Shown here piece after piece: positions 29,050 to 45,519 of a stretch of 64,000 nucleotides of DNA. The notes under the pieces were generated by a model that was not told where the DNA came from, ran no database searches, and saw only the letters and a program-made list of their open reading frames with translations. The position numbers and the translations under genes are program-made. The stretch is from Thermococcus guaymasensis DSM 11113 (GTDB lineage Archaea; Methanobacteriota_B; Thermococci; Thermococcales; Thermococcaceae): NCBI RefSeq assembly GCF_000816105.1, contig NZ_CP007140.1:124001-188000 (forward strand), written 5' to 3'. Every line of letters begins with the position of its first letter. Positions within the stretch are counted from its first letter, which is position 1.

Positions 29050-29062
29050 ACTATTCCATTAA

Positions 29063-29110
29063 AGAATATCTGGCGGGCCGGGCGGGATTTGAACCCGCGA
29101 CCTTCGGCTC
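29063..29110. repeat. attL, left copy of the 48-bp attachment site
   Basis: Identical over 48 bases to 54719-54766; the match begins AGAATATCTGGCGGGCCGGG and ends at CGGCTC. It contains the 3' third of tRNA-Arg (antisense to the plus strand, with the encoded CCA as TGG at 29071-29073) but not the rest of the tRNA, so it is the chromosomal end left behind. In the other strand sense it also encodes the peptide EYLAGRAGFEPATFG of the integrase. It starts 14 bases after the mptE stop. Confidence 0.95.
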
Positions 29111-29951
29111 GTCGAGAAGCCTTAACGAAATGTGGGACCTCTACAAAGACCAATTCAGAGAATGGCTCTCAGGCAAAGTAACGGGCCCACGCACAGTGAA
29201 GGACTACATGAACTCGCTCAACAGGTTTTTGGAGCGCCACAAAATCAGCACAATCGGCGAGTTGGTCTCGGCCCTACAAAGCATCAACTACAAACATCAC
29301 ACTGTCTCGGCCCTCAGGAACTTTGTTACCTTCCTTGAACTCAACGGGATCATAGACGAAGACGACGCCAACAGGATTAGGAAATACGCAAAAATCAAGA
29401 AGACGAGCGCGGACAGGACATTTATAACAAATGACGAGCTAAGAGAGGCATGGAAACAAGTCAAGGCATACAACGAAAAGCGTCGCGAGCTGACGTTTAA
29501 ACTGCTCGTCTTCTCCGGGCTTCGCTTATCCCATATTCACTACCTACTCACCACATTCGACCCTGAAAAGCTGATTTTCCTCGGCGATATAGCAAAGTAT
29601 CCTCTGCAGGAAGCCGGCAAAGGTACAAAGAGGGTGTTCTACGCCTACATGCCGACAGAACTCGCGCTGGAGCTTGAAAGACTCTCAGACAGCTACGATG
29701 CTATGAGAGAGTGGGTAAAGAATTTCAAACCACCAGCACACCGTGTCAAGGCGAGAACGATTAGAAAATGGCACTACAACTTTCTCATCAGGCACGACGT
29801 CTCTTTTGAGGTTGCGGACTTCATTCAAGGCCGTTCTGCAAAGAGTGTGGGGGAACGACATTACGCCAACCTAGAACTCCTAGCTGACGAGGCATATTCC
29901 ACGGTTGTTAATGACCTGAAAAAGGTGCTGGAGGGTGATCGGGATGATTGA
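29063..29951 (+). CDS. Integrase, C-terminal part (split tyrosine recombinase, intC)
   Basis: From attL the frame continues with a SAM-like core-binding domain (DYMNSLNRFLERHKISTIGE) and a tyrosine-recombinase catalytic domain: SGLRLSHIHYLL (first arginine), GTKRVFYAYMP (the beta-hairpin lysine region), HRVKARTIRKWHYNFLIRH and GRSAKSVGERHYANLE (last His and Tyr). The N-terminal 70 residues are at the right end (54513-54766). An in-frame TTG at 29046 lets the fragment read from chromosomal DNA, but it would lack the N-terminal region. In the circular form the whole integrase would have about 364 residues. Confidence 0.9.
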
Positions 29952-30249
29952 GCTGATTAGATGGGCACTGTTTATCTTGGTGGTCTCAATGTGGGCTTTC
30001 TATGCCGTGCTGATGCTGTACGATGTTCTCTTCCGCCCCTGGAGACTCGTGGAAGAGCAAATCATAACGATTGAAAGGAACATCGAGACTCTCAAAAGGG
30101 GCGGTTGGAGGGCGAAGCTCCACAGCTGGATTTCAATGCCGCTCTGGCATGGTGATGTTGGAAGGCATTTGAAATACCTGCTCGGCCTGCGCGAGTTGAA
30201 GCGGGCCGAGTTAGAGCTTTTTGAAAGACTGAAATCCGAAAGGAGGTGA
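29944..30249 (+). CDS. Small single-span membrane protein, unknown
   Basis: 101 residues with one hydrophobic helix near the start (WALFILVVSMWAFYAVLML) and a basic/amphipathic remainder (EEQIITIERNIETLKRG, HLKYLLGLRELKRAELELFE) likely in the cytosol. The start is ATG 29944, six bases after GGTG, inside the last codons of the integrase. It is followed by two overlapping or adjacent genes, so it belongs to a short left-end operon. No family is recognised. Confidence 0.65.
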   Translation: MIELIRWALFILVVSMWAFYAVLMLYDVLFRPWRLVEEQIITIERNIETLKRGGWRAKLHSWISMPLWHGDVGRHLKYLLGLRELKRAELELFERLKSERR

Positions 30250-30256
30250 GCGGAGG

Positions 30257-30463
30257 ATGGCCCGGAGAATCGGGGAGAAAGGGGTAATCGTTAGGGGAAT
30301 AGCAACCGATGCGAACACTGAGTTGATGGCTAAGGTTCTGGCTCATGTGAAAAAGTCCTCAAAGGCTCAAGTTTACAGGGAGGCAGTAGCAAAGCTTTTT
30401 AGGGACGAATTTGGAAATAAGTCGGTTCACCAAGTGATCAAGGAGCTCGGGGTTGAGCTATGA
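30257..30463 (+). CDS. Small basic protein, possible DNA-binding regulator
   Basis: 68 residues. It starts at ATG 30257 (AGGAGG-like site GGCGGAGG, partly) and contains two predicted helices (TELMAKVLAHVKKSSKAQVY, REAVAKLFRDEFG). The pattern of a short strand (GVIVRGIATDAN) followed by two helices suggests a ribbon-helix-helix fold but the match is weak. Its stop overlaps the start of the next gene (ATGA), so the two are translationally coupled. Confidence 0.6.
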   Translation: MARRIGEKGVIVRGIATDANTELMAKVLAHVKKSSKAQVYREAVAKLFRDEFGNKSVHQVIKELGVEL

Positions 30464-31995
30464 GAAGACTAAGGAGTCTAATTTCTCTAGAGCTAGTGTG
30501 GCTTCTACTCATAGCATTTTTTATCAACTTTTCAATCATTTACGGAAGAAAAATGCCGGTTGGGGCAAACGGGGGAGACACAGTAATCCACATGGGTATC
30601 ATCAGAGGGATATACCTTGGCAGAAACCCCTTCCTTGACCAGCATTACAATGTCCCGCCTAACTGGTATCCTTTCCTGTACCATCTTCTGATAGCAGCAC
30701 TCTCAAAGCTCACAAACATTTCAATTTGGACTCTCATGATCTGGACTCCCCTAATTTTTGCCATGCTGATGGTGACTGCATGGTACTTCCTCGGACGGGA
30801 ACTCAACAAAGAATATGGCGGCCTGTTATTAGGAGCTCTTTCCTTCCTTATAATGGGTTCACAACTTTTCCCAAACCCAAAAGCTCTCATTCCGATATTA
30901 CTTGCTCTTCTCTATCTGGAAATTGTAAAATACTTGAGGAAAAGAAAGAGAAAACACGCAGTATATGCGGGAGTTCTTTTGGGCCTTATGCTGTGGAGCC
31001 ATGTCGGAGCGAGCTTTCCTGTTCTGGCTGGAGTCCTTCTGTACGCTCTGCTCAAACTCAAAGAGGATAAAAACTTGTTGCTTATCCCGTTGGTTGCAGT
31101 AGTCGTGATCTCACCCTACCTCATTAACATAGCCCTACATGTGCAACCCGAAGCAACAGGAATGGTTGAGGGCTTGTGGTTGAAAGAATTGACGCTAAAC
31201 AGAACATGGGTAAGAATAAAGCCTCCCTTGTGGGGTTTTGCCTTACTTTTGACTGCCTTAGTCATTGCGTTCAGGAAGAAAGAAAATGAAGAGTTTTGGA
31301 AGTTCATGCTTGTGAGTATTAGTGCAATGCTACTTGTCAACATTCTCCCCTCGATTTTATATTCAACGATGGGCTTGGAGATTTTTCCCTCCCGCTTTGC
31401 GATACCATTGCGTTATTCCTCTGTCTTACTGTACTTCTACGCAATAACAGAGCTCATAAGGAGTGCAAAGGTTCGGAAAATCGTAGTTTATGCTATTGCT
31501 ACTATACTGGTCCTGCACGGATCATTAGGATTTCTTCACTACAATTATACACACATCAGCTCAAAAGTCACATACAAGAATTTCACAGAATTAAGGGACG
31601 GTTATGGTGGAAAATATGTTACGGGGCTCGTGAAAGTATCCGAATGGGTTAACAAAAACACACAACGAGACGACTACATTATTGGACACCCTTATACTTT
31701 GGAATGGATTGCGGGTTTCACGGGACGGCCTGTCGTGGCTGTAACATTTGGACATGGAAATCCGTTTATCGATATGGAGGAACGGAGGGAGGACATAAAG
31801 CGATTTTTCAAAGATCCTCAAGATAGAAAAGAAGTCGTTGAAAAGTATGGGGTTAGATATGCTATCGTTGATCCTTTTGTTGTGAGAACATATAACGTCA
31901 CTGTGGACTCGTTTTCAAGTGATTTTAGAGTTGTATTTGAATGGGGAGATTTCTATGTGTTAGAAATTCAAAATTCTTCGCTAATTTTTAGCTAA
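30460..31995 (+). CDS. GT-C-like membrane glycosyltransferase
   Basis: 511 residues. About 10 to 12 hydrophobic helices fill residues 8-370, with an N-terminal outer loop carrying NGGDTVIHMGIIRGI, the acidic motif expected after the first helix of GT-C enzymes, followed by a soluble outer domain of about 140 residues with NYTH, NFTE and NVTV sequons. GT-C enzymes use dolichyl-phosphate sugars to modify proteins or lipids outside the membrane. The gene is clearly more A/T-rich than its neighbours, so it may have a separate origin. It may glycosylate the element's own secreted proteins; that link is inference. Confidence 0.65.
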   Translation: MRRLRSLISLELVWLLLIAFFINFSIIYGRKMPVGANGGDTVIHMGIIRGIYLGRNPFLDQHYNVPPNWYPFLYHLLIAALSKLTNISIWTLMIWTPLIFAMLMVTAWYFLGRELNKEYGGLLLGALSFLIMGSQLFPNPKALIPILLALLYLEIVKYLRKRKRKHAVYAGVLLGLMLWSHVGASFPVLAGVLLYALLKLKEDKNLLLIPLVAVVVISPYLINIALHVQPEATGMVEGLWLKELTLNRTWVRIKPPLWGFALLLTALVIAFRKKENEEFWKFMLVSISAMLLVNILPSILYSTMGLEIFPSRFAIPLRYSSVLLYFYAITELIRSAKVRKIVVYAIATILVLHGSLGFLHYNYTHISSKVTYKNFTELRDGYGGKYVTGLVKVSEWVNKNTQRDDYIIGHPYTLEWIAGFTGRPVVAVTFGHGNPFIDMEERREDIKRFFKDPQDRKEVVEKYGVRYAIVDPFVVRTYNVTVDSFSSDFRVVFEWGDFYVLEIQNSSLIFS

Positions 31996-32164
31996 ATCTT
32001 AGCTGATACGGGCTTAAAGGAGTTTTTCGACGATTCTGTTAGTTACATTGGGCCTTCCTCCGCTCTAATCAGTTCTCTCAACTCAGATTCATGGTAGAGG
32101 GCTGAGCCGGCAGGGCGGGCACGCCCACGGCGATGAGGCCGTCATTGCTTCCGGGGGTGGTAGT

Positions 32165-32341
32165 ATGGACTCTCTTGAGGGGATTGCTCGGGAGATTGAG
32201 GCTCTTGACAAGTATGCAGTGAGGCTTCGAGAGCAGATTAATGCAGCACAGCGCGAGCTCGCGAGGGTCACGCGTAAGAAACAACAACTGGTGACAGAGC
32301 TTTCTCGGCTCAAAAAGGCGCGGAAGGTGACGGCAGTATGA
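32165..32341 (+). CDS. Short coiled-coil protein, 58 residues
   Basis: ATG 32165 (GGTG five bases before) to TGA 32341. It is one long charged helix: IAREIEALDKYAVRLREQIN then RELARVTRKKQQLVTELSRL, ending in a basic tail. No cysteines, no hydrophobic segment. Its stop overlaps the next start (ATGA), which couples it to the membrane protein at 32338. It is the first gene of the long operon that reaches 41106; the 169 bases before it hold no gene I can support. Confidence 0.68.
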   Translation: MDSLEGIAREIEALDKYAVRLREQINAAQRELARVTRKKQQLVTELSRLKKARKVTAV

Positions 32342-32763
32342 GGTCAAAAAGCCTCGCTCAGCTGGTTCTCTTTGTCCTCATCGCAGCATTCTGGTACAAG
32401 ATTGCATGGTCAATCATGACGAAGGAGGCTTTAGCGGTCGGCGCGATCGGTGGTTTGATGATGCATTGGGCGCTGACGAACAAGGGGAACAGGAACATCG
32501 TGCTGATAAGGCCTCTCACGAGTGGCTGGAGGGTTCTACTGTACGACATGATGCTGTTGAGCTTCATCTACGCGCTCTGGCAGGCGAATGGCACGGCTCT
32601 TCTCGACGCGCTTAAGAACTCGGTGCAGAACCTCGCGCTTTTCCTCGCCCTCGCGGGCGGGATTGGGGTTGACTACTCGGTTGGGGGGGTGAAAAATGGA
32701 CGTTATCGGGCTGGTTCTCGCGTTTGGATTGATTGGGCTCGGTGTTGTCATGCTTGGGCTTAG
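32338..32763 (+). CDS. Membrane protein with about four spans; 3' end uncertain
   Basis: 141 residues as read. The first 117 have three or four hydrophobic helices (LVLFVLIAAFWYKIAW, LAVGAIGGLMMHWAL, VLLYDMMLLSFIYALW, LALFLALAGGIGV). After a G7 run (32683-32689) the remaining 24 residues (NGRYRAGSRVWIDWARCC) look unlike a natural end and overlap the next gene by 68 bases. With six Gs the frame would stop at once (VGG then TGA), with the next ATG four bases on, as elsewhere in this operon. So the true end may be near 32691. Confidence 0.62.
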   Translation: MRSKSLAQLVLFVLIAAFWYKIAWSIMTKEALAVGAIGGLMMHWALTNKGNRNIVLIRPLTSGWRVLLYDMMLLSFIYALWQANGTALLDALKNSVQNLALFLALAGGIGVDYSVGGVKNGRYRAGSRVWIDWARCCHAWA

Positions 32764-32803
32764 CATTGACACGTGGGCGCTCTCAAGGAGGTGGTCTAGA
32801 TGA
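32696..32803 (+). CDS. Single-span membrane peptide, 35 codons
   Basis: ATG 32696 to TGA 32803, 34-35 residues: MDVIGLVLAFGLIGLGVVML then a short polar end with WALSRRW. GGGGTG lies five bases before the ATG. Its stop overlaps the ATG of the next large secreted protein (ATGA). It is almost only a membrane helix; such peptides occur as holin-like or coat-like proteins in other systems, but nothing here proves either. Confidence 0.6.
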   Translation: MDVIGLVLAFGLIGLGVVMLGLSIDTWALSRRWSR

Positions 32804-34764
32804 AGAAGCTCGGAGTTGTGCTCGCTCTGCTGGTGTTGTTTGGATCCATGACATGGGGATATACCAACGCAAGGACGCTGGCGATTTTCAGCGTTGATTT
32901 TTCGACAGATACCAGTCTTGTTGATACGTATAGCACGGGCTCATGGGTTACAGATGTAGATCTGGAGCATTGGTTCTTAGATGCGATTTGTCAGGGCTCA
33001 AAGGGCGGGATTGGCTACGATGATACGAAGAAGGCGTTTTATCTTAAGCTGGACAGTTCTGGCAACACGGGGCATCACAGGGCGAGGGTTGCAATTCTGA
33101 AGGAGAATATCACGAATGTTCCTGAGAACCTCACGGTCAAAATGACGATTTACGCAACTACTAACAGGGGTGCGGCTGTTGGTGCTGTGATTTTCACTAA
33201 GAGCGGGATCGTTTATTCAGTAATGCACTACGGCGGTGATAATTGGGAAATTGGGACAGATTACGGCTCAGAGACTATGGGAAAACTGGCATGGGTCGAT
33301 AATGATTACAGATTTAATGATTTAAACTGGACGGCTGTTAATGCTGGATTTACCACAGTATCTTTCTCACCGTTCGATGATTTGGCGGCAAAAGGTGTAC
33401 AGCTTTCGCCCGACGATGTGGATCATATAAATGTGTTCTTTGGCGGTATGATATACAATGATGTTGTCCAGTATGTTTACCTCAAGAGCATCGAGGTCAC
33501 AGGTCCCGGCGGAGTCGTTACCTTCTACCTCAAGGATGGCCTAACCGGTCAGGGGCTTACTGAGGTAACAGTAAAGGAGTCAGACGGCTCCGTTTTGGGA
33601 GTTCTTAGTGATGGGGACAGTTTAGAGCTGCCAGTGGGCACTTATGTGCTGACTTTTGAAAAGAGTGGTTACTGGACGGCCACCGAGACCATCAATGTTC
33701 AAGGCGACATGACTGTCACCGTTGAGCTTTATCCGACCACGGCAGCATTTATGTTCAAGAACTTCCCGACGAGTATAAACGTATATGAGAATACGATCCA
33801 CGAGCTGACGTTCACGATCAGCCCAATAAACACAAATTCGACCTATGCCACCTACATGAGCATAAGTGGGCTTTCTAATGTTCTTGAAGTTAGAAGAGAG
33901 GGCTCCATCGTCTCTCCAGAGGGCGGAAAGTACTACCTCGGTGACATAAGCGGCCCAACGCAGGTCAGCATTAAGTTCAAGGCCAGTAGCGTGGGCACTT
34001 ATGCTTTTTCAATAACACTCGAGAGCTCGGATGCCTTCGGGGCGAATACTTACACGGCCACGAAACAGGTAACGTACACGGTTAATCCGCTGCCCTTCTC
34101 TATCCAAATGCCTTCGGAGTGGCAGGTGGGCGATAACGAGCTGAGGATCAGCGAGGCCAGCGGGCAGAGCTATTCAATGATTGTAATCCTCAAAGACTCA
34201 AGCGGAGCAGAAGTCTGGAGCGGTTCCTACGCCTTCAGCCCGTATGAGGTTCATACGTTTACCGTGAACGTTCCGCAGGAAGGCACTTACATGCTTGAGT
34301 TCCAGTGGGCTGGCAAGGTTGCGAGTTACACGATCAACGTGGGCACGGGCATTACCCTTCTCACTAAGTCCGTGAGCGTCAAGAAGGGTGGTGTTGGGAC
34401 TGTTCAGGTGCAGCTCAAGAATCCGAGCGATGCAACGAAGTACTACACAATCAAGCTTGAGGGCGGCTTTCTGGATGTTCCGGTGAATCAGACTGTTGCG
34501 ATCGCTCCCTCTTCGACCAAGACGGTAAGCATCGCCTTCGCGGTCCCTGACAATGTACAATTTGATGCTTACGATTTGACGCTGAAGGTTCTCGAGGGCG
34601 ATGCAGTGAGGTATAGTGATACTGTGCACGTGATTATCACGGGTTCTGAGGGATCCGGCCTCCTCCCCATTGGTGGCGGTTCTAGCGGTTCAACACTCCT
34701 CCTCTTGGGTGCAGCCGCTGCGGTAGGCTTAGTGGCAATTCTGGCAGCGTCACGGCGGGGGTGA
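32800..34764 (+). CDS. Large secreted surface protein with C-terminal membrane anchor
   Basis: 654 residues. Signal peptide at residues 1-20 (LGVVLALLVLFGSMTWG), a first domain rich in beta strands, then a carboxypeptidase-regulatory/PEGA-like module (VTFYLKDGLTGQGLTEVTV to VTVELYPTT, about residues 240-310), two or three Ig-like modules, and a C-terminal helix (STLLLLGAAAAVGLVAILAA) followed by SRRG. It should be displayed outside the cell, anchored at its C-terminus. Several N-x-S/T sequons. In a virus it would be a spike; in the pT26-2-like view it is part of a surface structure. Confidence 0.75.
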   Translation: MKKLGVVLALLVLFGSMTWGYTNARTLAIFSVDFSTDTSLVDTYSTGSWVTDVDLEHWFLDAICQGSKGGIGYDDTKKAFYLKLDSSGNTGHHRARVAILKENITNVPENLTVKMTIYATTNRGAAVGAVIFTKSGIVYSVMHYGGDNWEIGTDYGSETMGKLAWVDNDYRFNDLNWTAVNAGFTTVSFSPFDDLAAKGVQLSPDDVDHINVFFGGMIYNDVVQYVYLKSIEVTGPGGVVTFYLKDGLTGQGLTEVTVKESDGSVLGVLSDGDSLELPVGTYVLTFEKSGYWTATETINVQGDMTVTVELYPTTAAFMFKNFPTSINVYENTIHELTFTISPINTNSTYATYMSISGLSNVLEVRREGSIVSPEGGKYYLGDISGPTQVSIKFKASSVGTYAFSITLESSDAFGANTYTATKQVTYTVNPLPFSIQMPSEWQVGDNELRISEASGQSYSMIVILKDSSGAEVWSGSYAFSPYEVHTFTVNVPQEGTYMLEFQWAGKVASYTINVGTGITLLTKSVSVKKGGVGTVQVQLKNPSDATKYYTIKLEGGFLDVPVNQTVAIAPSSTKTVSIAFAVPDNVQFDAYDLTLKVLEGDAVRYSDTVHVIITGSEGSGLLPIGGGSSGSTLLLLGAAAAVGLVAILAASRRG

Positions 34765-34768
34765 TGGC

Positions 34769-36979
34769 ATGCTCCGCTCTCTGTTTTCAATTTTCAGGCG
34801 AAAAGAGGAAGAGGAAAATCCAAAGATCGAGGAGAAGCAGGAAAAGCAAAAGAAGCGCAGGGATTGGAGGAGCTTCACTTCAATAGCACTAATGCTGATG
34901 CTTTTAGTCAGTGTTTACGCTGAACCTGTTGCGGCTTGGCCGGGCGAGGGGCTCTTTAAGGCCGCGGGCGATGCCTTGAGCTCGGCAGTTAATGCTGTAA
35001 AAGACAACATTGAGGGTGGCATAGCTGGAGCTTTAGCGGGTGCAGCTACTGGAGCAATGGTGGGTTCTGCAATACCAGGAGTTGGTACTGCAATCGGTGC
35101 GGGGGTTGGTGCTGTTGTGGGGTTCTTTACGGGCGTATATGCTGAGGACAAAGTAAAGCAGACGATACATGATATAACTCATCCCGGTGGGCCAGGGATT
35201 AGTATTTCATATGAGGGGATCAATGCAACTGCTGATGACTTAGAAAAAGATAGTGATCTGCTTGAGAAATATCATGTAGTTGATGATGCACAAAACCAGG
35301 CCTATTCCGAGCTTACTGAGCTCCTCGCCAAGCTGGCGACGACCTCAGTTAAGTACGACGTCTCCATGAGCGGTGCGACTGGAAACATCCAGCTTGACCT
35401 CTATGGGCCCGATGAGATCCTTGGCTTCTCGGCCTTTCCGGTCAAGTTGAGACTCTACTTTGCGAGTGATCCAATTGAGTACAACAAGATACACCTGCAA
35501 AAGGTCACGATGTACGTGGTTAGGGCCGACACCGGGACAGCTTACTATACTTATGAGAGAACATTCACTAATCTCACGTTCAACGGCGATGCTTATGATA
35601 TTAATACATTCCTCAAGGTTCCGGACGACCTTGACTATGAAGTCGCGAACGCCCTCTCAACCGGCCAAATCACTCCAGATCTCATCGAGAAACTGAAATC
35701 CGCAAAAACCCCACAGTTTGAGATCTATGTGAGAATTGACGCTTATAAAGAAGACTGGAGCCTGGTCAACGGCACGTGGGTACATGTGAGAGATATTCCG
35801 CTAACCGTCACCGCGCAGACGCAGAGCGTTTGGAGGCACGTTACGAGCGACAGCGACGTGGTCTTGTTCCAGACTGGCTTAAACGCCTCGATGCCTGCCG
35901 AGCTCCTGAGCCTTGCGATGGGCAAGTTCGCTCCGTTCATCGCCCAACAATGGGGCGCTGTTTCTGACGTCCTCATCAGACCATACTCAACGCCCGTCCA
36001 TGTGCAGGAGTCAACAGCGACCTGGAAGTTCTTCGTCGCGCCTAACCACGACTTCCTCACGATGTTTGACTCAAGTCCTCGCATCTATGATGACTTTGAA
36101 GTCTTTGCAGTCAGAGTTCTCCAAAACGGAGCCTTCGAGATGGCTGACCGGAGGCCAAACATCCTCGGGGACATGACAACGGGAATAAAGGAGGCCTACG
36201 GTGCTGTTAAGTACACATTCGGGCCTGACATTGTGAATTACAGGGTCTATGCCTTGGGCCTCATCTGGTTCGAGCGCGATGATGGTACCAAAATCCCGGC
36301 TTGGGTTCTGATTCAACCCCACATGAGTGTCCTGAGCATGGAAAAGCTGGCCCTCGATGATACTAGACTGCAGAAGATCCTCCCGATTTTCGATGACAAG
36401 CAGATAACCGAGCTTGAGCTCCAGACCCTCAAGGCCGAGCTTGAGTCCGTTAAGCAGGACATTCAGGAGAAGATTCAGGCTGCGGAGCAGTTGAAGAAGA
36501 TGGCCGAGGCTAACGGCAATACTGAGGCTGCGGAGTACGCTGACAGGGCGATCAAGTACTACCAGCTTGAGCTTCAGATGTTAGACCAGGCTACGAGCGT
36601 TGAAGACGCGCAACTCGCACTTAACTACCTTAACGCGGCTAAGAAGTATGAGTACGCTGCAGACTTCGAGAAACAGGCTGCGGATAAGGCTTACAAGGGT
36701 GATTCTGAGGGTGCTAAAGCCCTTGACAGTCAGGCGCAGGAGTACAAGAAGGACGGTGACAAGTATGTTCCTCACTTCAGTGTTGGCGGCTTGGCGAATA
36801 CGATTCTCGGGAACCTGAAGGACTGGAAGATGTTACTGCTCCTGGCGGTTCTGCTCATCGGCGGCTACTACTTGTTCGGAAGGATGGGCGCGCTGATCGG
36901 GCTTGGGATTTGGCTGGCTATTGTGATTGGTATTCCCGCGTTAAAGGCCCTCGTGGCCTGGTTGGGAACAAAACTCTGA
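34769..36979 (+). CDS. Large membrane protein with glycine zipper and coiled coil
   Basis: 736 residues. A basic/charged cytosolic start (residues 1-35), a membrane helix or signal (SIALMLMLLVSVYAEPVAA), then a glycine-zipper hairpin (IAGALAGAATGAMVGSAIPG and onward to VVGFFTGVY, about residues 90-130). A beta-rich part follows, then a long helical coiled coil (residues about 535-660, KAELESVKQDIQEKIQAAEQ) and two C-terminal membrane helices (LLLLAVLLIGGYYLF, LIGLGIWLAIVIGIPAL). Glycine zippers insert into membranes in pore formers and tail proteins. GGTG precedes ATG 34769. No family recognised. Confidence 0.72.
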   Translation: MLRSLFSIFRRKEEEENPKIEEKQEKQKKRRDWRSFTSIALMLMLLVSVYAEPVAAWPGEGLFKAAGDALSSAVNAVKDNIEGGIAGALAGAATGAMVGSAIPGVGTAIGAGVGAVVGFFTGVYAEDKVKQTIHDITHPGGPGISISYEGINATADDLEKDSDLLEKYHVVDDAQNQAYSELTELLAKLATTSVKYDVSMSGATGNIQLDLYGPDEILGFSAFPVKLRLYFASDPIEYNKIHLQKVTMYVVRADTGTAYYTYERTFTNLTFNGDAYDINTFLKVPDDLDYEVANALSTGQITPDLIEKLKSAKTPQFEIYVRIDAYKEDWSLVNGTWVHVRDIPLTVTAQTQSVWRHVTSDSDVVLFQTGLNASMPAELLSLAMGKFAPFIAQQWGAVSDVLIRPYSTPVHVQESTATWKFFVAPNHDFLTMFDSSPRIYDDFEVFAVRVLQNGAFEMADRRPNILGDMTTGIKEAYGAVKYTFGPDIVNYRVYALGLIWFERDDGTKIPAWVLIQPHMSVLSMEKLALDDTRLQKILPIFDDKQITELELQTLKAELESVKQDIQEKIQAAEQLKKMAEANGNTEAAEYADRAIKYYQLELQMLDQATSVEDAQLALNYLNAAKKYEYAADFEKQAADKAYKGDSEGAKALDSQAQEYKKDGDKYVPHFSVGGLANTILGNLKDWKMLLLLAVLLIGGYYLFGRMGALIGLGIWLAIVIGIPALKALVAWLGTKL

Positions 36980-36990
36980 GGTGGTGAAAA

Positions 36991-37557
36991 GTGGGGAATG
37001 CAAACAAAGATGAAAACCGGCCTGGATTTGGGGAAAGGGCCGGGACTTTCTTTTTCAACAAAGTGGGCTTCCGCCTCGCGGCAACGGGCATGATGGCCTT
37101 GATGGCCTGGTACGCTCAAGCAAAGAGCGTCACGATAGCAGAATTCAACGCCGCCTACGCAAGCATCCCGCTCGTCGGCATAATCCTCGCCCTCGTCTTC
37201 GACTATGGTCTTGACACTGGAAAACTCTACAACAGAATGCTCGGCAGGGGCAAGAGCGGGCTTTCAAAGCTCGCCTTTGCCTTCGGAGCAGTGTTCGTCT
37301 TCTTCATGACGTTCACATGGCTCCTAGCAGGAACTATTACGCTGAATCTTGCAACAATCACGCCAGCTACTCTCGTCGCTTCAGCCCTCGTCGCCCTCAT
37401 TGTCCTCCTGCCGAACACGGGAACATCGGAATGGCTCCTCTGGCTCTGGATTGCAGAGACAATCGTGACCGGCGGCGCGCACCTGACAATCTTCCCGGCA
37501 ATCAAGCTCCTCAACATGGCTCTTACAGTGCTTCTCGGGGGTGGTGTTCTTGGTTGA
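36991..37557 (+). CDS. Four-span membrane protein, paralogue A
   Basis: 188 residues starting at GTG 36991 after GGTGGTG. Four or five hydrophobic segments. The block LLAGTITLNLATITPATL then LLPNTGTSEWLLWLW is matched in the next gene by IMTGTITMNMNAYSPGVF then VMPETGDDELILFLW, so the two genes arose by duplication. No known family. The neighbours suggest a membrane complex encoded by the element. Confidence 0.72.
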   Translation: MGNANKDENRPGFGERAGTFFFNKVGFRLAATGMMALMAWYAQAKSVTIAEFNAAYASIPLVGIILALVFDYGLDTGKLYNRMLGRGKSGLSKLAFAFGAVFVFFMTFTWLLAGTITLNLATITPATLVASALVALIVLLPNTGTSEWLLWLWIAETIVTGGAHLTIFPAIKLLNMALTVLLGGGVLG

Positions 37558-38101
37558 TTGGGCTGCTCAAAGGGCCAAACTCAAAACTGCAAACTGGCTT
37601 GTGAAACTGCTTATAGTCGTAGTAATCGGTGGATATGGCCTTATGTGGGCGGCAGACAAGGCAGTGACCGTTGGCGACTACGTTACTGCCATAGCAAAAA
37701 CGCCAATCTGGCTCGTCGTGGCGATAGAACTCTTTGACAAGCTCGCAGACAAGAAGGACTACACCACTTGGGGCATCTACATGAGTAGGCAGTGGGGCGG
37801 CAATTCCGTCCTGTGGGGCATTGTAATCGGCCTGATAGCATTCCTTGGCGTCCTTTACATCATGACGGGCACGATAACCATGAATATGAACGCATACTCG
37901 CCAGGCGTGTTCCTCGCGGCAATGACCTTCGCGCTTTACATAGTCATGCCAGAAACCGGAGACGACGAGCTCATACTCTTCCTATGGCTCGCAGCGCAGG
38001 TTGCCACGAAGGGACAGTACCTCCACGAGGCCGTCTTCAGCCTGCCCATCATAAGCAAGCTAATGACTGTCATCCTCAGCAGGCTCCCATTACCGCTCTG
38101 A
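37550..38101 (+). CDS. Four-span membrane protein, paralogue B
   Basis: 183 residues, start TTG 37550 (GGTG six bases before), overlapping the end of paralogue A. Hydrophobic segments: LLIVVVIGGYGLMWAA, PIWLVVAIELFD, VLWGIVIGLIAFLGVLYIM, FLAAMTFALYIVM, ILFLWLAAQVA. Conserved GTIT-M/L-N and P-x-TG-x-x-E/D motifs are shared with paralogue A. Shared motifs between two different hydrophobic proteins point to a specific packing or ion/lipid contact. The function is unknown. Confidence 0.72.
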   Translation: MVDWAAQRAKLKTANWLVKLLIVVVIGGYGLMWAADKAVTVGDYVTAIAKTPIWLVVAIELFDKLADKKDYTTWGIYMSRQWGGNSVLWGIVIGLIAFLGVLYIMTGTITMNMNAYSPGVFLAAMTFALYIVMPETGDDELILFLWLAAQVATKGQYLHEAVFSLPIISKLMTVILSRLPLPL

Positions 38102-38112
38102 GGTGACTCAAC

Positions 38113-38451
38113 ATGCTCGGCAGGGTTGCAGTGAGTCTCATCGCTTACCTCCTCTGCATTTTCAAGTTCCAGGACAGCATGGTTACAGTGGGCCACCTCC
38201 TCGGCCTCAGCGGCTTTTGGGCGCTCTTCATTCCCTCGGCCCTCATCGGGCTGAGCGTTTACAGGATTGCAGACCTGGACCATTGGGGCCTGTGGGACGC
38301 GGCCAGTTTCCTCGTGATTGGTAGTATCGCAATGCTCGCAATGACCGGAGACCCAAAGGCGACAACATACGAGCTAATCAAAGGCGTCGTGAGCTTTTCA
38401 GTTGCCGCGATACTTGGTGCAAGAGCCGCAATCACAGGGGGGAGGCACTGA
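38113..38451 (+). CDS. Three- or four-span membrane protein, probable third paralogue
   Basis: 112 residues with hydrophobic segments RVAVSLIAYLLCIF, LLGLSGFWALFIPSALIGL, AASFLVIGSIAMLAM and SFSVAAILGARAAI. Its second segment (MVTVGHLLGLSGFWALFI) aligns with AVTVGDYVTAIAKTPIWLVV in paralogue B, so it is probably a shorter member of the same set. GGTGACTCAAC precedes ATG 38113, giving GGTG with seven bases. The stop overlaps the next start. Confidence 0.65.
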   Translation: MLGRVAVSLIAYLLCIFKFQDSMVTVGHLLGLSGFWALFIPSALIGLSVYRIADLDHWGLWDAASFLVIGSIAMLAMTGDPKATTYELIKGVVSFSVAAILGARAAITGGRH

Positions 38452-38684
38452 TGGACATCAACGCAATAATTGACCAGGCCTACAGCCTCGCCCAAACCCA
38501 TCCATACCTCGGCCTTGCAATAATCCTCTTCCTGCTTTCGTTCCTCTCAAAGAATAAGGTTCTCGACTACCTACTCTGGTTCCTCGCGGCCCTCGCGCTC
38601 CTGAAGGAGTTTTCGTTGTTTGGAACTTTGGTTGAGTTCCTCAAAGGCATTCCTGAAATGTTGAAACAGATTGGAGGTGTTTGA
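38451..38684 (+). CDS. Small two-span membrane protein (coat-like size), unknown
   Basis: 77 residues: a polar helix (INAIIDQAYSLAQTHP), two hydrophobic helices separated by SKNK (YLGLAIILFLLSFL, YLLWFLAALALLKEF) and an amphipathic end (TLVEFLKGIPEMLKQIGG). The size and the two close hydrophobic helices recall the major coat proteins of archaeal spindle-shaped viruses, but many unrelated small membrane proteins look like this. It overlaps the previous gene by one base (tgATGg) and is followed after three bases by the next. Confidence 0.65.
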   Translation: MDINAIIDQAYSLAQTHPYLGLAIILFLLSFLSKNKVLDYLLWFLAALALLKEFSLFGTLVEFLKGIPEMLKQIGGV

Positions 38685-38687
38685 AGA

Positions 38688-39473
38688 ATGAGAAAGTCGG
38701 AAAGGCAGCTCATAACGATTGGGTTGGTGGTACTCTTTGCGGCCATAGCCTGGTGGGCTTACAACCAGTACGGAGCCGACACGGGCGTCCTCCTGAACCT
38801 TGACAATCAGAGCAACAGCACAGAAACCTACCAGCTGGCCATCTCTGACCTCTCCGCCAGCGTTGACCAGTCAACTGGCCACGTGATCGTGGCTTTCAAG
38901 CTCGCGAATGAGGAGCACTTCAACATCAGCAGCGTTGAGGTCCTCTATGCACTCAACGTCGCCGATCCCAACAACGCCACCTATGCCCCAATTAATGCTA
39001 CCGAGGCTAACGGCACTTACAAGGCCGAGATTCCGGCCAGTTTCGGCGATACCGTCTATTACAAGGTCAAAGTCGTCTACGACACCGGCAAGGAGCTCGT
39101 GACCGACGTCCACACCATAACCGTCGTTGACACGACTGCTCCGACCGCGACCCTGAGCATTGACTACAACGCCACGACTGGCAACGCGACCATCACCGTC
39201 AACGCTACCGACAACGACGCCATAGACAAGGTTATCCTGTTCTATGCAGTCACCGCAGACGGGAACCTGACCAACGTGGCCTTCAGCAACGTCACCCTCA
39301 ACGTCAGCCCGTACTCCTACACGCTCACCGTTGACAGCAACACGACTGACAGCACATACTACTACCTTGATGTCTACGCAGAAGTCTATGACCTGAGCGG
39401 CAACATGGCCAGAGTGCCGGCGAACGGCACCGTCCAGCTCTACGCGAACGAGACCAAGACCATAACCGGCTGA
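38688..39473 (+). CDS. Type II membrane protein with Ig-like, sequon-rich outer domain
   Basis: 261 residues. A cytosolic start RKSERQ, one helix (LITIGLVVLFAAIAWWAY), then an outer part of two beta-sandwich-like repeats (DLSASVDQSTGHVIVAFKL and TAPTATLSIDYNATTGNATI as starts). I count 15 N-x-S/T sequons in about 240 outer residues, which is far above chance and means heavy glycosylation is expected. VVDTTAPTATLSID is typical of bacterial Ig-like repeats. It is probably a spike or adhesion subunit of the operon's surface structure. Confidence 0.7.
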   Translation: MRKSERQLITIGLVVLFAAIAWWAYNQYGADTGVLLNLDNQSNSTETYQLAISDLSASVDQSTGHVIVAFKLANEEHFNISSVEVLYALNVADPNNATYAPINATEANGTYKAEIPASFGDTVYYKVKVVYDTGKELVTDVHTITVVDTTAPTATLSIDYNATTGNATITVNATDNDAIDKVILFYAVTADGNLTNVAFSNVTLNVSPYSYTLTVDSNTTDSTYYYLDVYAEVYDLSGNMARVPANGTVQLYANETKTITG

Positions 39474-39484
39474 GGTGGGCTGGA

Positions 39485-39970
39485 ATGATGCCCACCTACC
39501 GTTCTTCCCCATCTTTTCCAAAGGTGATTCTCCGCCTTTTTGCAGTGGTTACGCTAATTTTTTTGCTCTACTACGGCTATTCGACGTTCAACGAGACTGA
39601 CCCACTCAAGGAGCGCCTCTATGAGTTAGGTTACCCCGAAAACGGCCACATAATCCAGGGAAACAAAATCCTCTGGAGCGACGGCCACCTAACAATCCTT
39701 CAAGGAGAATACATCGAGAACTACCCCATCACCGCAGAGCAAGCCTACAACATCGTTCTCCAGTACCTCGCGAGCTACAATGCAAAACTCAAGCAGTATG
39801 ATTACAAACTCTACCCCAAGAAATCCAGCCTCACCGAGAAGGAGAAGGACGGTCAGCTCTATTGGGTTTTCGAATTGAAGCTCAAGGCTGGCCGGGATTC
39901 AATGTTCGCGGGTTTTGCGTGGGTGAACCGGAAGACTGGAACCGTTGATATAAAGGGCATTTTGGGGTGA
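39485..39970 (+). CDS. Membrane-anchored small protein, PepSY-like shape, unknown
   Basis: 160-161 residues; either ATG 39485 or 39488. One hydrophobic helix (VILRLFAVVTLIFLLYYGY) then an outer domain with ITAEQAYNIVLQYLASYNAK followed by strands ending YWVFELKLKAGRDSMF...FAWVNRKTGTVDIKGIL. This helix-plus-hairpin with a closing NRKTGTV resembles PepSY domains, which often inhibit or chaperone other exported proteins; the match is by eye only. The stop overlaps the next gene's leader. Confidence 0.62.
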   Translation: MMPTYRSSPSFPKVILRLFAVVTLIFLLYYGYSTFNETDPLKERLYELGYPENGHIIQGNKILWSDGHLTILQGEYIENYPITAEQAYNIVLQYLASYNAKLKQYDYKLYPKKSSLTEKEKDGQLYWVFELKLKAGRDSMFAGFAWVNRKTGTVDIKGILG

Positions 39971-39975
39971 TTGTG

Positions 39976-41106
39976 GTGAGAAGGCTCGCTTCCATAGTAT
40001 TCATGTATATATTAATAGGAAGTCTCGGGCAGGTTCTGGCGGCTGGATCCTACACCTGGCAGGGGACCCTTCAAGCCGGCCAAACCCTCTACATCTCGGA
40101 CAATTACCTCAACGCTAGCATTACAGTTTTGAACAGGCCCATTGCCCTCATTGAAGTCAATACAATCCCCTACTTCCTCGCCAATGGGACAGTAATCATC
40201 GGCCAGATGAATGTGACGGTTGTCCCTCTCAACGAGAGCGCAATGGAAGTGATAATTCAGTCAGATAAGCCATTTTCGGCCACGTTCTGGCCGGTTGTAG
40301 TGACGAGAACCGTCGTCGTCAACCAAACAAACGAGACTATGATTAGAGAGCTCCAAGCGCTGGTTAATCAGCTCAACGCAACTCTCCAGGAAAAAGAGGC
40401 CCTGGTTCAAAACCTCACCTTCCAGATCGAGGGCCTTCAGGAGCTGATAAAGACTCTGGAAGGTAGGGCCGCAGAACTTGAGGCTAACAACTCGATTCTC
40501 CTTGAAGACCTTGAGAATCTAACTGCAACATTGAACTCCAAAGAGGTCCTTATCTCCCAACTCAACGCGACCATCCGGGAGAAAGATCTCTTGATTGCCA
40601 ACTTAACCGGGGCTCTGAATGAAAGTAAGGCTCTCATTGAGCAGCTTAACGCAACCCTTCACGAAAAGAACCTCATGATCGAGAACATGACCGCGAGGAT
40701 TTCAGAGCTCGAAGGTGAAAATAACAAGCTAAAGAGCCAGATTACTACTCTTGAGAACAGACTGAAAACTTCAAACCTCACCGCTCTCCAGGCGCGGCTT
40801 TTGAACCTTACGAAGGAGAACCGCGAGCTCAAGGCCGAGCTGGCCAACCTCACGAGCAGGTACAATCAGCTCAAGGCGAAGGCGGATTTTCTTGAGCAGC
40901 AGAACGAGGAATACAGGCAGATTATCCAGCAGGTGATGGAGGGGGAGAGTCAACAAGAGGAGCAGAGTTACATTGAGAAGGCGAAGAAAGAGCGCCTCAT
41001 CGGCTCGGTTCTGTGGAAAAGCCTGATTGGAAGCGTCATCGTGGTTGGGCTGATCGGGTACGGGCTCTATAAAAAGAAAAGGTCGTGGGAGCTTGGAGGC
41101 CTCTAA
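39976..41106 (+). CDS. Secreted coiled-coil stalk protein with C-terminal anchor
   Basis: About 376 residues, start GTG 39976 (GGTG six bases before). Signal peptide (LASIVFMYILIGSLGQVLAA), a beta-rich head (YTWQGTLQAGQTLYISDNYL, about residues 20-115), a heptad coiled coil of some 210 residues (repeats such as LVNQLNATLQEKEALVQNLT and IEQLNATLHEKNLMIENMT), then a single helix (LWKSLIGSVIVVGLIGYGLY) and a basic end. Internal repeats show the stalk grew by duplication; many NLT/NAT sequons. It should stick out from the cell as a rod. It is the last gene of the operon. Confidence 0.75.
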   Translation: MRRLASIVFMYILIGSLGQVLAAGSYTWQGTLQAGQTLYISDNYLNASITVLNRPIALIEVNTIPYFLANGTVIIGQMNVTVVPLNESAMEVIIQSDKPFSATFWPVVVTRTVVVNQTNETMIRELQALVNQLNATLQEKEALVQNLTFQIEGLQELIKTLEGRAAELEANNSILLEDLENLTATLNSKEVLISQLNATIREKDLLIANLTGALNESKALIEQLNATLHEKNLMIENMTARISELEGENNKLKSQITTLENRLKTSNLTALQARLLNLTKENRELKAELANLTSRYNQLKAKADFLEQQNEEYRQIIQQVMEGESQQEEQSYIEKAKKERLIGSVLWKSLIGSVIVVGLIGYGLYKKKRSWELGGL

Positions 41107-41264
41107 AAAGGCATTGTGGGAAAGTTGCATAGTTTTATTTTCAAAGCACAAAAGTAGAGGCCTCGAATTAGATAAAACAGCGATGATAAGCCTCATTTCA
41201 CTCGAATGAGATAGTTTGATGGAGTTGGGAGGAATCATGGAAAGCGCCTGGAGGTGCGGGTTAG

Positions 41265-42566
41265 ATGGGGGTATCAATTTATATCGGGAAGAATAGCGAT
41301 AAAGAGAAACGGTACATCGATTTAAAGGAAACCGAGGCTAACCACATTACTTTCCTCGGACCAAGTGGAAGCGGAAAGACCACAGTCATGAGGGCCATTG
41401 CCGAGGAGATATTTGACAAGGTTCCAGGGGCCCTCATCATAGTCATCGAGCAGAAGTACGACAAGAACAAGGCCCGAGAGCTCATGAACTTCCTCGCACT
41501 TATCACCAAAAGAAAAGGCTCGGACTTCGTCAAAGAGAACTTTCAAGACCTACTGACCTATTATAACATTCTCAAAAACGATGGCGTTCTTCACGGAAAG
41601 CCTGGCGATTTCGCATTCGGTTGGCCCAACTGGCCGTTCACGACAGTCCCTCCATTTCCGAACGACAGACATTCCATCCTCTCCTGGCACGGGCTCAAAC
41701 CAAAATCATTTCCAGTCAAGAGAATAGTCTTTAGACCCACCAGAGACATCTCAGCGATTGAAAAAGACAACAACTGCATAGCCGTAAACGGAAAAATCCG
41801 CTACAAAGACGTTGACTTTGACTTCATCAGCAGGCTTGCTCAAATCAACAGAAACACGATTTACGGACGGGTCATCAAACAGGCGTGGGATCTGGAAAAG
41901 AAACGAGACCCCGACGAGCTGGAGCGCTTTGGCAAAGAGTGGGAGAAAAAGTATCGGCCTAACTCCAACGTACCAAGCCAAACCCTCCTCAGCATTCTCG
42001 AAGTCTGCGCGCTCCTGAGGAGCGATACAATCTTCTCAAAGCACAAAGACTTTACCTCCGAGCTCTCAACCGACGTCATCAACGTGATAGACTTCTCCGC
42101 AAACTCCGAGCTGACACCAGCTGAGGAAGCCTGGATATTCAAACACCTCGTCATGTACATCGTCTCCAAGTTCGTCCGCTTCAGAAACACGCCAGTCTTC
42201 TTCATCATTGACGAAGTTCAGAACCTCCTCCAGCACTCTGACGGCAGGAAAGCCCTCGATAAACTAAACAGGGAGGGCCGCTCCAATTGGGTGAACATTA
42301 TCAGCGGAACCCAATACATGTACGGCCTGCCCGCCTTCCTCGTTTACGGAGCAGCTCACATCGGGATCATTGGCAGGATTGCCAGTGCTGATGACGAGAT
42401 GCTCCTGAGAAAAGTCATCCGGGACTTCCACCGCATCAGGAACCCCAAGGTGAAAAGCTTCACCGAGTACAAGAACGTTAAGCCCTGGTTAAAGGGCCGC
42501 GGCTGGTTCTCTTTTGATAAAATGTACACCGAGCGGATGTACTTCCGCCCACCACAGAGTTTGTGA
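41265..42566 (+). CDS. HerA/FtsK-like P-loop ATPase (DNA or protein pump motor)
   Basis: 433 residues. Walker A FLGPSGSGKTTVMRAI near residue 31; Walker B VFFIIDEVQNLL near residue 310; sensor region NIISGTQYMYGLP. The layout (beta-hairpin start, P-loop, long insert, DEVQNLL) matches the HerA/FtsK/VirB4-like group that drives conjugation, DNA packaging or secretion. It follows a 158-base gap after the surface operon; the gap holds an inverted repeat CTCATT/AATGAG (about 41191-41209) and no gene I trust. The family's exact role here is not known. Confidence 0.82.
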   Translation: MGVSIYIGKNSDKEKRYIDLKETEANHITFLGPSGSGKTTVMRAIAEEIFDKVPGALIIVIEQKYDKNKARELMNFLALITKRKGSDFVKENFQDLLTYYNILKNDGVLHGKPGDFAFGWPNWPFTTVPPFPNDRHSILSWHGLKPKSFPVKRIVFRPTRDISAIEKDNNCIAVNGKIRYKDVDFDFISRLAQINRNTIYGRVIKQAWDLEKKRDPDELERFGKEWEKKYRPNSNVPSQTLLSILEVCALLRSDTIFSKHKDFTSELSTDVINVIDFSANSELTPAEEAWIFKHLVMYIVSKFVRFRNTPVFFIIDEVQNLLQHSDGRKALDKLNREGRSNWVNIISGTQYMYGLPAFLVYGAAHIGIIGRIASADDEMLLRKVIRDFHRIRNPKVKSFTEYKNVKPWLKGRGWFSFDKMYTERMYFRPPQSL

Positions 42567-42576
42567 GGTGATGAAA

Positions 42577-43272
42577 ATGTTCGGGTTTAGGAAAAAGAAG
42601 AATGAAAAAGCTCAACAAGTTGATGCCCTCCAGGAGAAGACCGAGACAATCCCCATACTCCCAAGCACTCGCCTTGAAGAACGCGCAAAGAAACTCCGCG
42701 AGCTGAACTACAAGTTCGCCCAAGTTTACGAGCCAAAGCAGAGAGTCATCATCTGGTTCAACGGGAAAGAAAGCCGAGTGATCGGTTATCCAATCGGACT
42801 CCGCGAGGACCTCAACGACTACGTTATACTCTACCAAGTCAGACCCCCGAACTGGCTCGATAGCTTGGTCCACAGCCTCTTAAGAGTAGTGGGTAAAAGC
42901 CCACCGACAGCCTTAATCCGCGTTCCCAAGAAAATCGCCTACTTCGGCGACGAGACAATAACAATCCTCGCCAGCGCCTTCATCATGAACGAGCACTATG
43001 AATACGAGGCCGTTCCTCTGTCCCTGGACGAGACTGACGCGAAGCTTTACCTAGCTTTGAAGAAGGAGAACGACATGCTTTGGGACCTGATAAGCATCAT
43101 CCGCTATCGCGTGCCCGAAGTCGTCGAGGACGCTATGAAAATGAACCCAAGGATAAAGACTTACATGAGCACCAAACAGCAAAACCCGGACGAGGGGACA
43201 AAGGAAGAGAAGTTTGGTGGCGTTGAGGTGGCCTTCGAGGACAACCCGTTCAGACGCTGGAGGTTGCCGTAA
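42577..43272 (+). CDS. Unknown protein paired with the HerA-like ATPase
   Basis: About 231 residues, start ATG 42577 (GGTG six bases before), ten bases after the ATPase stop. A basic/charged first 20 residues (FGFRKKKNEKAQQ), a domain with strands (QRVIIWFNGKESRVIGYPIG), an amphipathic segment (NWLDSLVHSLLRVVG) and a helical C-terminus. There is no clear membrane helix. The tight spacing on both sides makes it a likely partner of the ATPase. No family recognised. Confidence 0.68.
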   Translation: MFGFRKKKNEKAQQVDALQEKTETIPILPSTRLEERAKKLRELNYKFAQVYEPKQRVIIWFNGKESRVIGYPIGLREDLNDYVILYQVRPPNWLDSLVHSLLRVVGKSPPTALIRVPKKIAYFGDETITILASAFIMNEHYEYEAVPLSLDETDAKLYLALKKENDMLWDLISIIRYRVPEVVEDAMKMNPRIKTYMSTKQQNPDEGTKEEKFGGVEVAFEDNPFRRWRLP

Positions 43273-43571
43273 TGGGGGAAGGTGCATATCAAACCGTGCC
43301 GGCAGACCTTGACGAACTGTTCAGCGAACCCAAAGAGAAGCCAGCTAAAAAAGCAACTTCAGGAGACAGTAGACCCGGAAAGCTTCCCAAAGCAAAATTG
43401 AACAAGAAACTAATTGCTGCCATAGTCCGCCGCCTCCGCATTCTTTACCTCGACGCTCCTAAGAAAGAAGACAGGATCCTTATCAATGAAATCTTGGACG
43501 ATTTGGAGCAGTTGATGATACTAAACGGCATTGGTCTTGAACTCTTGGGGGAAAAGAAAGAAGGGGAATAA
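43272..43571 (+). CDS. Small unknown protein, third gene of the ATPase operon
   Basis: 99 residues. The first 40 are polar and probably disordered (FSEPKEKPAKKATSGDS); the rest is helical (NKKLIAAIVRRLRILYLDA, RILINEILDDLEQLMILNG). Its ATG overlaps the preceding stop (taATGg). The helical part could bind the ATPase or its partner. No family recognised. Confidence 0.66.
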   Translation: MGEGAYQTVPADLDELFSEPKEKPAKKATSGDSRPGKLPKAKLNKKLIAAIVRRLRILYLDAPKKEDRILINEILDDLEQLMILNGIGLELLGEKKEGE

Positions 43572-43596
43572 AACTCTGCATCACCACCGATTTGTT

Positions 43597-43692
43597 CTAA
43601 TTTTCTTTTGGAGAGTGTTTTTCAAGCTCAGAGCGAATTGCATCATGGATTACTTTAAATAAAGCAGCACCAGCAAAAACAAATAGAAACAT
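43597..43692 (-). CDS. Possible 31-residue membrane peptide
   Basis: An ATG-to-TAG frame of 32 codons, with a hydrophobic start (MFLFVFAGAALFKVI) and a charged end (RSELEKHSPKEN). It fits a tiny single-span protein by composition, and it is on the same strand as the two genes just to its right. Against it: no GGTG-type site before the ATG, and A/T-rich DNA easily gives such a frame. It lies in the 162-base gap between convergent genes. Confidence 0.28.
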   Translation of the reverse strand: MFLFVFAGAALFKVIHDAIRSELEKHSPKEN

Positions 43693-43733
43693 ACGGATCT
43701 AAAGACCCAACATCCTTTAACTTTTTACTTTCA

Positions 43734-44471: not shown

Positions 44472-44482
44472 AGTCAACCACC

Positions 44483-45271: not shown

Positions 45272-45437
45272 TCCAGGGCCCTCCTCCGCTCTTTTTAGAG
45301 CGCTGAAGATTTTACTCCGGAGTATAAAAACCCATCGCCAACCCAAAGCCATTTCGCAAACCTTATTTAAGAGAAAGCCTATTTAACAGGGGAACAAAAC
45401 ATTATGATAACCATCTAAACCCACAGGAGGGAGAAAC

Positions 45438-45479
45438 TTGACAGACCAAGACCAAGCTAAAATCGAAAACTCCAAATAA
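45438..45479 (+). pseudogene. Remnant of an AbrB-gene start (13 codons)
   Basis: TTG 45438 reads MTDQDQAKIENSK then TAA. Its first 14 bases (TGACAGACCAAGAC) are identical to the start of the AbrB gene at 49058, and the strong site AGGAGGG lies six bases before it. A 12-base promoter box AAACCTTATTTA is also shared (45358-45369 and 48993-49004). So this is a shortened copy of the AbrB gene's front, left of the AT-rich cassette. It could still act as a leader peptide. Confidence 0.55.
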
Positions 45480-45516: not shown

Positions 45517-45519
45517 ACG

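What the first reader, a model, noticed from the sequence alone, without database searches (positions are those of the whole stretch)
32165..41106. Nine-kb operon that could build an extracellular or envelope structure
Eleven to twelve tightly spaced genes encode a coiled-coil peptide, single- and multi-span membrane proteins, a C-anchored surface protein, a glycine-zipper membrane protein, an Ig-like sequon-rich protein and a coiled-coil stalk. Together with the ATPase genes following, this looks like a machine (secretion, DNA transfer, membrane vesicle or virion) with no recognised capsid.
Basis: inference. Interest (0 to 1): 0.65.

Follow-up and report, generated by a model that had tools for sequence, protein, structure and literature searches.

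The report
Known archaeal plasmid's transfer-like gene module
These genes are the shared core of an already described family of archaeal plasmids, here integrated in a Thermococcus chromosome; they probably build a membrane machine that moves the plasmid between cells, and one surface protein in it carries an interchangeable outer head that looks like a recognition part.

Summary
In detail: eleven tightly packed genes at 32165-41106 are intact, under purifying selection and kept in order in about 25 related elements. They are not an unknown operon. The window is Thermococcus guaymasensis DSM 11113, and the region is the conserved core (t26-3p to t26-13p, followed by ATPase t26-14p and t26-15p) of TguDSM11113_IP1, an integrated pT26-2-family plasmid published in 2019; published coordinates and the 46-bp att repeat match exactly. 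What I add: (i) surface protein t26-5p has an almost invariant Ig-like stalk and anchor, but its ~200-residue outer head is swapped between elements: heads show no BLAST similarity where stalks are 80-88% identical, and head type follows neither stalk, ATPase nor host genus. (ii) The ATPase and t26-15p travel as one exchangeable pair; t26-6p and t26-7p are also exchanged independently. (iii) The ATPase model is closest to HerA and VirB4 translocases. No capsid or viral relative was found. Best mechanism: a contact-dependent DNA-transfer apparatus with interchangeable recognition heads; a vesicle-like particle is the main rival.

The parts
29065..54766 (.). Integrated plasmid TguDSM11113_IP1 (pT26-2 family), from att repeat to att repeat
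   Evidence: Perfect direct repeat of 46 bp at 29065-29110 and 54721-54766; equals the published 153,065-178,766 with the window at genome 124001
29046..29951 (+). C-terminal part of the split integrase
   Evidence: 45% identity to the pT26-2 integrase, residues 84-351
32165..32341 (+). t26-3p homologue, 58-aa coiled-coil peptide
   Evidence: 81% identity to t26-3p
32338..32763 (+). t26-4p homologue, membrane protein
   Evidence: 72% identity; hydrophobic segment
32800..34764 (+). t26-5p homologue: signal peptide, swapped head (about residues 26-240, nt 32875-33520), tandem Ig-like stalk, C-terminal membrane anchor
   Evidence: Conservation profile and head/body comparison; model
34769..36979 (+). 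t26-6p homologue, glycine zipper, Ig-like and helical domains; relative solved as 2wb7
   Evidence: Pfam T26-6p domains E 2e-31, 2e-21, 3e-20; PDB match
36991..37557 (+). t26-7p homologue, first copy, about four membrane spans
   Evidence: 28-41% identity to t26-7p relatives
37541..38101 (+). t26-7p homologue, second copy, about four membrane spans
   Evidence: 36-42% identity
38113..38451 (+). t26-8p homologue, about four membrane spans
   Evidence: 75-82% identity
38451..38684 (+). t26-9p homologue, 77 aa, two membrane spans with a basic loop
   Evidence: 43-46% identity; alignment of 20
38688..39473 (+). t26-10p homologue, N-anchored Ig-like protein, 15 sequons
   Evidence: 61-62% identity; sequon count
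39485..39970 (+). t26-11p homologue, single-span protein
   Evidence: 77% identity
39967..41106 (+). t26-13p homologue: signal peptide, coiled coil of variable length, C-terminal anchor, 18 sequons
   Evidence: 58% identity over the C-terminal part; profile
41265..42566 (+). t26-14p, HerA-type ATPase
   Evidence: 96% identity to t26-14p; HerA domain Pfam DUF87 E 5e-8; model closest to HerA/VirB4
42577..43272 (+). t26-15p, soluble partner that covaries with the ATPase
   Evidence: 88% identity; Mantel rho 0.79 with t26-14p
43272..43571 (+). t26-16p homologue
   Evidence: 72% identity
54513..54842 (+). N-terminal part of the split integrase, overlapping tRNA-Arg
   Evidence: 62% identity to residues 17-66 of the pT26-2 integrase
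54727..54804 (-). tRNA-Arg(ccg), integration target
   Evidence: ARAGORN and Rfam

Best explanation
Shown: this is the core module of the integrated pT26-2-family plasmid TguDSM11113_IP1. Inferred: the module makes a contact-dependent DNA-transfer apparatus. The HerA-type ATPase t26-14p, working with its soluble partner t26-15p, drives plasmid DNA through a membrane complex of small multi-span proteins (t26-4p, -7p, -8p, -9p) braced by anchored outer proteins (t26-6p, -10p, -11p, -13p). The C-anchored t26-5p stands above the membrane on a tandem Ig-like stalk and presents an exchangeable head that recognises the partner cell's surface and so sets which cells can receive the element.
For: Membership: coordinates, att repeat and gene-by-gene homology. 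Conserved order and purifying selection. ATPase in the HerA/VirB4/TrwB fold group, nearest solved structures all of that group, and CedB of the archaeal DNA-import system is the top, though weak, NCBIfam profile. Exchangeable head on a conserved stalk, found only in this family. ATPase and t26-15p linked. Many small membrane proteins and no capsid-like product. The module travels only with integrative plasmids (PMC6972569).
Against: No DNA transfer has been shown. No component matches VirB2, VirB6 or VirB8 or the CedA1/TedC pilins by sequence; no 6-7-span channel protein is present; the free plasmids are typed non-mobilizable by PLSDB. In T. gammatolerans only three TGV1 proteins were seen by proteomics (PMC2718504). 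Both structure models rest on four sequences and the head is poorly predicted.
Confidence: 0.5

Rival explanations
1. The module builds a capsid-less membrane particle, a vesicle-like virion in the manner of pleolipoviruses: t26-7p and other small membrane proteins line the vesicle, t26-5p is the receptor-binding spike and t26-14p helps load DNA.
For: C-anchored spike-like protein with a variable outer part plus multi-span membrane proteins plus ATPase, no capsid; pleolipovirus virions are membrane vesicles with one spike type and one internal membrane protein (PMC5882103). Thermococcales release many vesicles (cited in PMC12713403).
Against: No relative of t26-5p, -7p, -9p or -14p among 50,697 phage records, nor of t26-6p or t26-14p in IMG/VR. 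No particles carrying TKV2 genes were detected after its excision (PMC8155482).
Confidence: 0.25
2. The module is a cell-surface or protein-secretion structure that benefits the host (adhesion, aggregation, envelope support) and does not move DNA.
For: Core kept intact in integrated elements without replication genes, and deletion of TKV2 or TKV3 slows growth (PMC6972569). Sequon-rich, Ig-like and coiled-coil outer proteins.
Against: A HerA-type translocase under very strong constraint (dN/dS 0.02-0.07 between elements of one ATPase type) is unusual for a pure surface structure; the module is found only in mobile elements.
Confidence: 0.15
3. The variable head and ATPase serve exclusion or competition: the module blocks entry of elements with the same head or acts on neighbouring cells.
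For: Head types are many and sharply distinct; the ATPase has its best PADLOC match, E 1.6e-16, to the MADS defence ATPase Mad8.
Against: The Mad8 match fits a shared HerA-type fold and no other MADS gene was recognised. T. kodakarensis holds two elements with identical heads (TKV2 and TKV3). The number of membrane components is more than exclusion needs.
Confidence: 0.07

Closest known systems
pT26-2 plasmid family (pT26-2, pGE2, TKV2/TKV3, TGV1, PHV1, pMEFER01); this element is TguDSM11113_IP1
   Same: All seven published core genes (t26-5, -6, -7, -11, -13, -14, -15) in the same order, type I split integrase, tRNA target
   Different: Two t26-7p copies and a longer t26-13p coiled coil than pT26-2; own head type on t26-5p; accessory glycosyltransferase-like gene upstream; no recognised replication protein
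Ced and Ted archaeal DNA-import systems and bacterial type IV secretion (VirB2/VirB4/VirB6)
   Same: HerA/VirB4-type ATPase with a set of small membrane proteins; t26-9p has the size and two-span layout of CedA1/VirB2 pilins (inference)
   Different: No sequence match to pilin or channel; no 6-7-span CedA/VirB6-like protein; large anchored outer proteins absent from Ced/Ted
Pleolipoviridae
   Same: C-anchored surface protein, multi-span membrane protein and ATPase in one block; no capsid
   Different: No sequence relation found; more envelope proteins; no particle reported for this family in the papers read

Membership tests
pT26-2 plasmid family | Seven core genes t26-5p, 6p, 7p, 11p, 13p, 14p, 15p | tested here: met
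   All seven found with E 5e-50 or better for at least one reference except t26-7p copies (E 1e-27 to 1e-31)
pT26-2 plasmid family | Conserved gene order of the 12-gene region | tested here: met
   Order t4-t5-t6-t7-t8-t9-t10-t11-t13-t14-t15 as in pT26-2; t26-12p is absent here
pT26-2 plasmid family | Thermococcales members: type I integrase split by integration at a tRNA 3' end | tested here: met
   Split integrase and 46-bp repeat over tRNA-Arg
Type IV secretion / Ced / Ted | VirB4/CedB-like ATPase | tested here: inconclusive
   Fold group HerA/VirB4/TrwB; CedB profile 25 bits against a cut-off of 700
Type IV secretion / Ced / Ted | VirB2/CedA1-like pilin | tested here: inconclusive
   t26-9p has the two-span layout but no sequence match to solved pilins; Ced and Ted themselves share no recognisable sequence (PMC9905601)
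Type IV secretion / Ced / Ted | VirB6/CedA-like channel with 6-7 spans | tested here: not met
   No product of the module has more than about four spans
Pleolipoviridae | Sequence relation to known spike, membrane protein or ATPase | tested here: not met
   No phage-record match for t5, t7b, t9, t14; no PHROG for t5 or t7
Pleolipoviridae | Extracellular vesicle-like virions | not testable with these tools
   Needs microscopy and proteomics of supernatants

The most novel reading that the evidence does not exclude
The module is a distinct euryarchaeal DNA-delivery machine, derived from neither known conjugation systems nor known virions, in which target-cell specificity is set by a cassette-swapped head on t26-5p (with t26-6p and t26-7p also exchanged), drawn from a pool of heads shared among elements and partly older than the separation of Thermococcales and Methanococcales elements.
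Probability: 0.35. Interest if true: 0.75.

Novelty: already known. Interest (0 to 1): 0.42.

Why it matters
How plasmids spread among hyperthermophilic archaea is largely unknown, and this module, present in about a fifth of the genomes of the window's phylum held here, is a good candidate for a dedicated machine. The interchangeable t26-5p head and the linked ATPase/t26-15p pair turn a vague putative secretion system into testable parts: which head binds which cell surface, and which motor pair fits which envelope set. If heads set host range, their sequence could predict which cells can exchange plasmids.

Tried and rejected
Search of IMG/VR with t26-14p and t26-6p alignments: no relatives. 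tblastn of t5, t7b, t9, t14 and two other head types against phage records: none. Profile searches of t7, t8, t9 and t11 against solved structures: no credible match; the best for t9, E 5e-4, covers 25 residues of a designed coiled coil. Fold search with the t5 model gave hundreds of generic tandem-Ig matches with TM-scores of 0.1-0.2, so it supports a beta-sandwich stalk but names no relative; the head was modelled at low confidence. Tape-measure and lysin PHROG matches of t6 and t13 fall on the glycine-zipper and coiled-coil parts and were set aside as composition. Identical element fragments on short contigs of G064 and G105 and in G058 looked like recent transfer but could equally be cross-contamination between assemblies, so they were not used. 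A search centred on Methanococcales could not be run. The first description of the family (Soler et al. 2010) is not held, so I cannot exclude that head variability was noted there; the 2019 main text does not mention it.

Full report
Identity. The window is bases 124001-188000 of a single-contig genome of 1,920,914 bp. Badel et al. 2019 (PMC6972569) list TguDSM11113_IP1, an integrated plasmid of the pT26-2 family in Thermococcus guaymasensis DSM 11113, at 153,065-178,766 with a 46-bp att site and a tRNA-Arg target. In window coordinates these ends are 29065 and 54766, where the sequence shows a perfect 46-bp direct repeat (48 bp if two further matching bases on its left are counted) overlapping tRNA-Arg at 54727-54804, with the integrase split between 29046-29951 and 54513-54842. 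The finding's region is therefore the published 'highly conserved region' of a named element. The species name is inferred from this exact agreement.

Gene content. From 32165 the genes match pT26-2 one by one: t26-3p (81% identity), 4p (72%), 5p (58% over the stalk), 6p (33%), 7p in two copies (28% and 36%), 8p (75%), 9p (46%), 10p (61%), 11p (77%), 13p (58% over the C-terminal part), then the ATPase 14p (96%), 15p (88%) and 16p (72%). Most also match pGE2 and, more weakly, Methanocaldococcus pMEFER01. The 11 genes at 32165-41106 have spacings of -17 to +36 bases; the ATPase starts 158 bases further on. t26-6p has Pfam domains named after this family and a solved relative, 2wb7.

More than chance. 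A t26-6p profile finds 25 of 115 genomes of the window's phylum, all in the window's family. In 24 loci taken from these genomes, and in three named plasmids, the core genes keep their order wherever the contig is long enough (in pMEFER01 t15 lies at the far end of the linear record, next to t14 on the circle). dN/dS is below 1 in every pair where it could be estimated and lowest for t26-14p and t26-15p (0.02-0.07 between elements of the same ATPase type; 0.36-0.46 in the one pair of different types). Sequons are more than three times as frequent as in shuffles in t26-10p and t26-13p and not enriched in the other products.

Main new observation: a swapped head. Across the elements t26-5p has a fairly conserved signal peptide, a variable part of about 200-260 residues, and a body of about 405 residues with column identity mostly 0.6-0.8 against 0.06-0.13 in the variable part. 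Among 26 sequences only 31 of 325 head pairs show BLAST similarity longer than 60 residues at E below 1e-3, whereas many pairs with bodies 80-88% identical have none, for example L044/L053 (86%) and L002/L043 (85%). Conversely the window's head is 78% identical to that of L039, more than the bodies (73%). Head similarity is uncorrelated with body, t6 or ATPase similarity (Mantel rho 0.07, -0.03, -0.06; p 0.30, 0.60, 0.75). At DNA level, similarity between the window and TGV1 (L038) ends inside the signal peptide (32844) and resumes at the stalk (33517). Four head types used as queries against 115 genomes hit only t26-5p genes (positions compared). The largest head group spans four host genera. 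The pMEFER01 head belongs with the heads of L043 and L045 (29% over 185 residues, E 8e-14, with L043), while the bodies are 35-37% identical, so this head type is probably older than the separation of the two plasmid lineages rather than recently moved (inference). 'Unrelated' here means by BLAST; a shared fold among beta-rich heads is not excluded.

Linked blocks. Distance correlations divide the module: t8, t9, t10, t11 and the t13 C-terminus vary together (rho 0.43-0.82); t14 and t15 vary together (0.79, p 0.001) but only weakly with the rest; the head, t6 and t7 are nearly independent of everything, including their neighbours. ATPase and t15 types agree closely (type B of t14 divides into two t15 types, and the singleton L054 joins one of them). 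TKV2 and TKV3 share about 8.9 kb of the core at 96% DNA identity but carry different motor types, possibly because of the known recombination between them. I read this as a conserved scaffold with an exchangeable motor pair and exchangeable outer parts.

Structure. The t26-5p model (mean pLDDT 70.8) shows a confident tandem beta-sandwich stalk (residues about 241-610, pLDDT 80-93) and a poorly predicted head; Foldseek matches are generic multi-Ig proteins in solved and viral libraries. The ATPase model (mean pLDDT 68, pTM 0.71) matches HerA, TdpA, VirB4 and TrwB structures (E 1.8e-7 to 1e-3). Badel et al. had reached VirB4 and the STIV2 packaging ATPase B204 by Phyre2. The closest PADLOC profile is Mad8, E 1.6e-16, and the top NCBIfam profile is CedB, far below its cut-off; both fit a HerA-type motor and do not by themselves decide the function.

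Mechanism. Shown: membership, gene order, selection, ATPase class, anchored outer proteins, swapped head, linked motor pair. Inferred: that the ATPase moves DNA, that the small membrane proteins form the channel, that the head recognises the partner cell. Contact-dependent transfer is preferred because the motor belongs to a DNA-translocase group, the module travels with integrative plasmids, and no capsid or viral relative appears. A vesicle-like particle remains a serious rival. The 2019 authors proposed a transfer mechanism or gene-transfer-agent-like use and noted that deleting TKV2 or TKV3 slows growth, so the general idea is theirs.

Verdict. Observation confirmed; interpretation partly supported and already published for this element; head swapping and motor pairing appear to be new in the literature I could read, but rest on comparative sequence evidence only.

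Noticed in passing
window 32049-32164: A leader upstream of t26-3p is conserved: the motif GGGCCTTCCTCCGCTCAAATCAGTTCTC lies downstream of a TATA-like stretch in 12 aligned elements; no Rfam match. Possibly the promoter/operator or leader of the operon.
   Followed up: partly
window 30460-31995: A 511-aa membrane protein resembling PMT/STT3 glycosyltransferases lies just upstream of the module; homologues in only three other element loci (L046, L047, L054). It might glycosylate the sequon-rich products.
   Followed up: partly
window 44000-50000: Low-GC block (about 40-42%) inside the element; the 390-aa and 467-aa genes have relatives only in TKV3 (L053) among the loci compared; no convincing family match.
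   Followed up: partly
window 49058-49887: Two adjacent AbrB-like regulators, both related to the single t26-20p of pT26-2.
   Followed up: no
window 44483-45352 (- strand): t26-19p homologue with a weak GOLD/emp24-like match (E 7e-5), conserved in pT26-2 and pGE2.
   Followed up: no
L026, L056, L057: 100% identical element fragments in three genomes placed in two genera, two of them on contigs of 3.5 and 4.8 kb: recent transfer or assembly cross-contamination.
   Followed up: partly
L053 and L055 (TKV3 and TKV2): The two T. kodakarensis elements share about 8.9 kb of the core at 96% DNA identity but have ATPase/t26-15p pairs of different types.
   Followed up: partly
L014, L019, L023, L030: Four t26-6p matches are listed with one TGA inside the matched stretch although an open frame of about 705-730 aa is given; not checked whether this is the terminal stop.
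   Followed up: no
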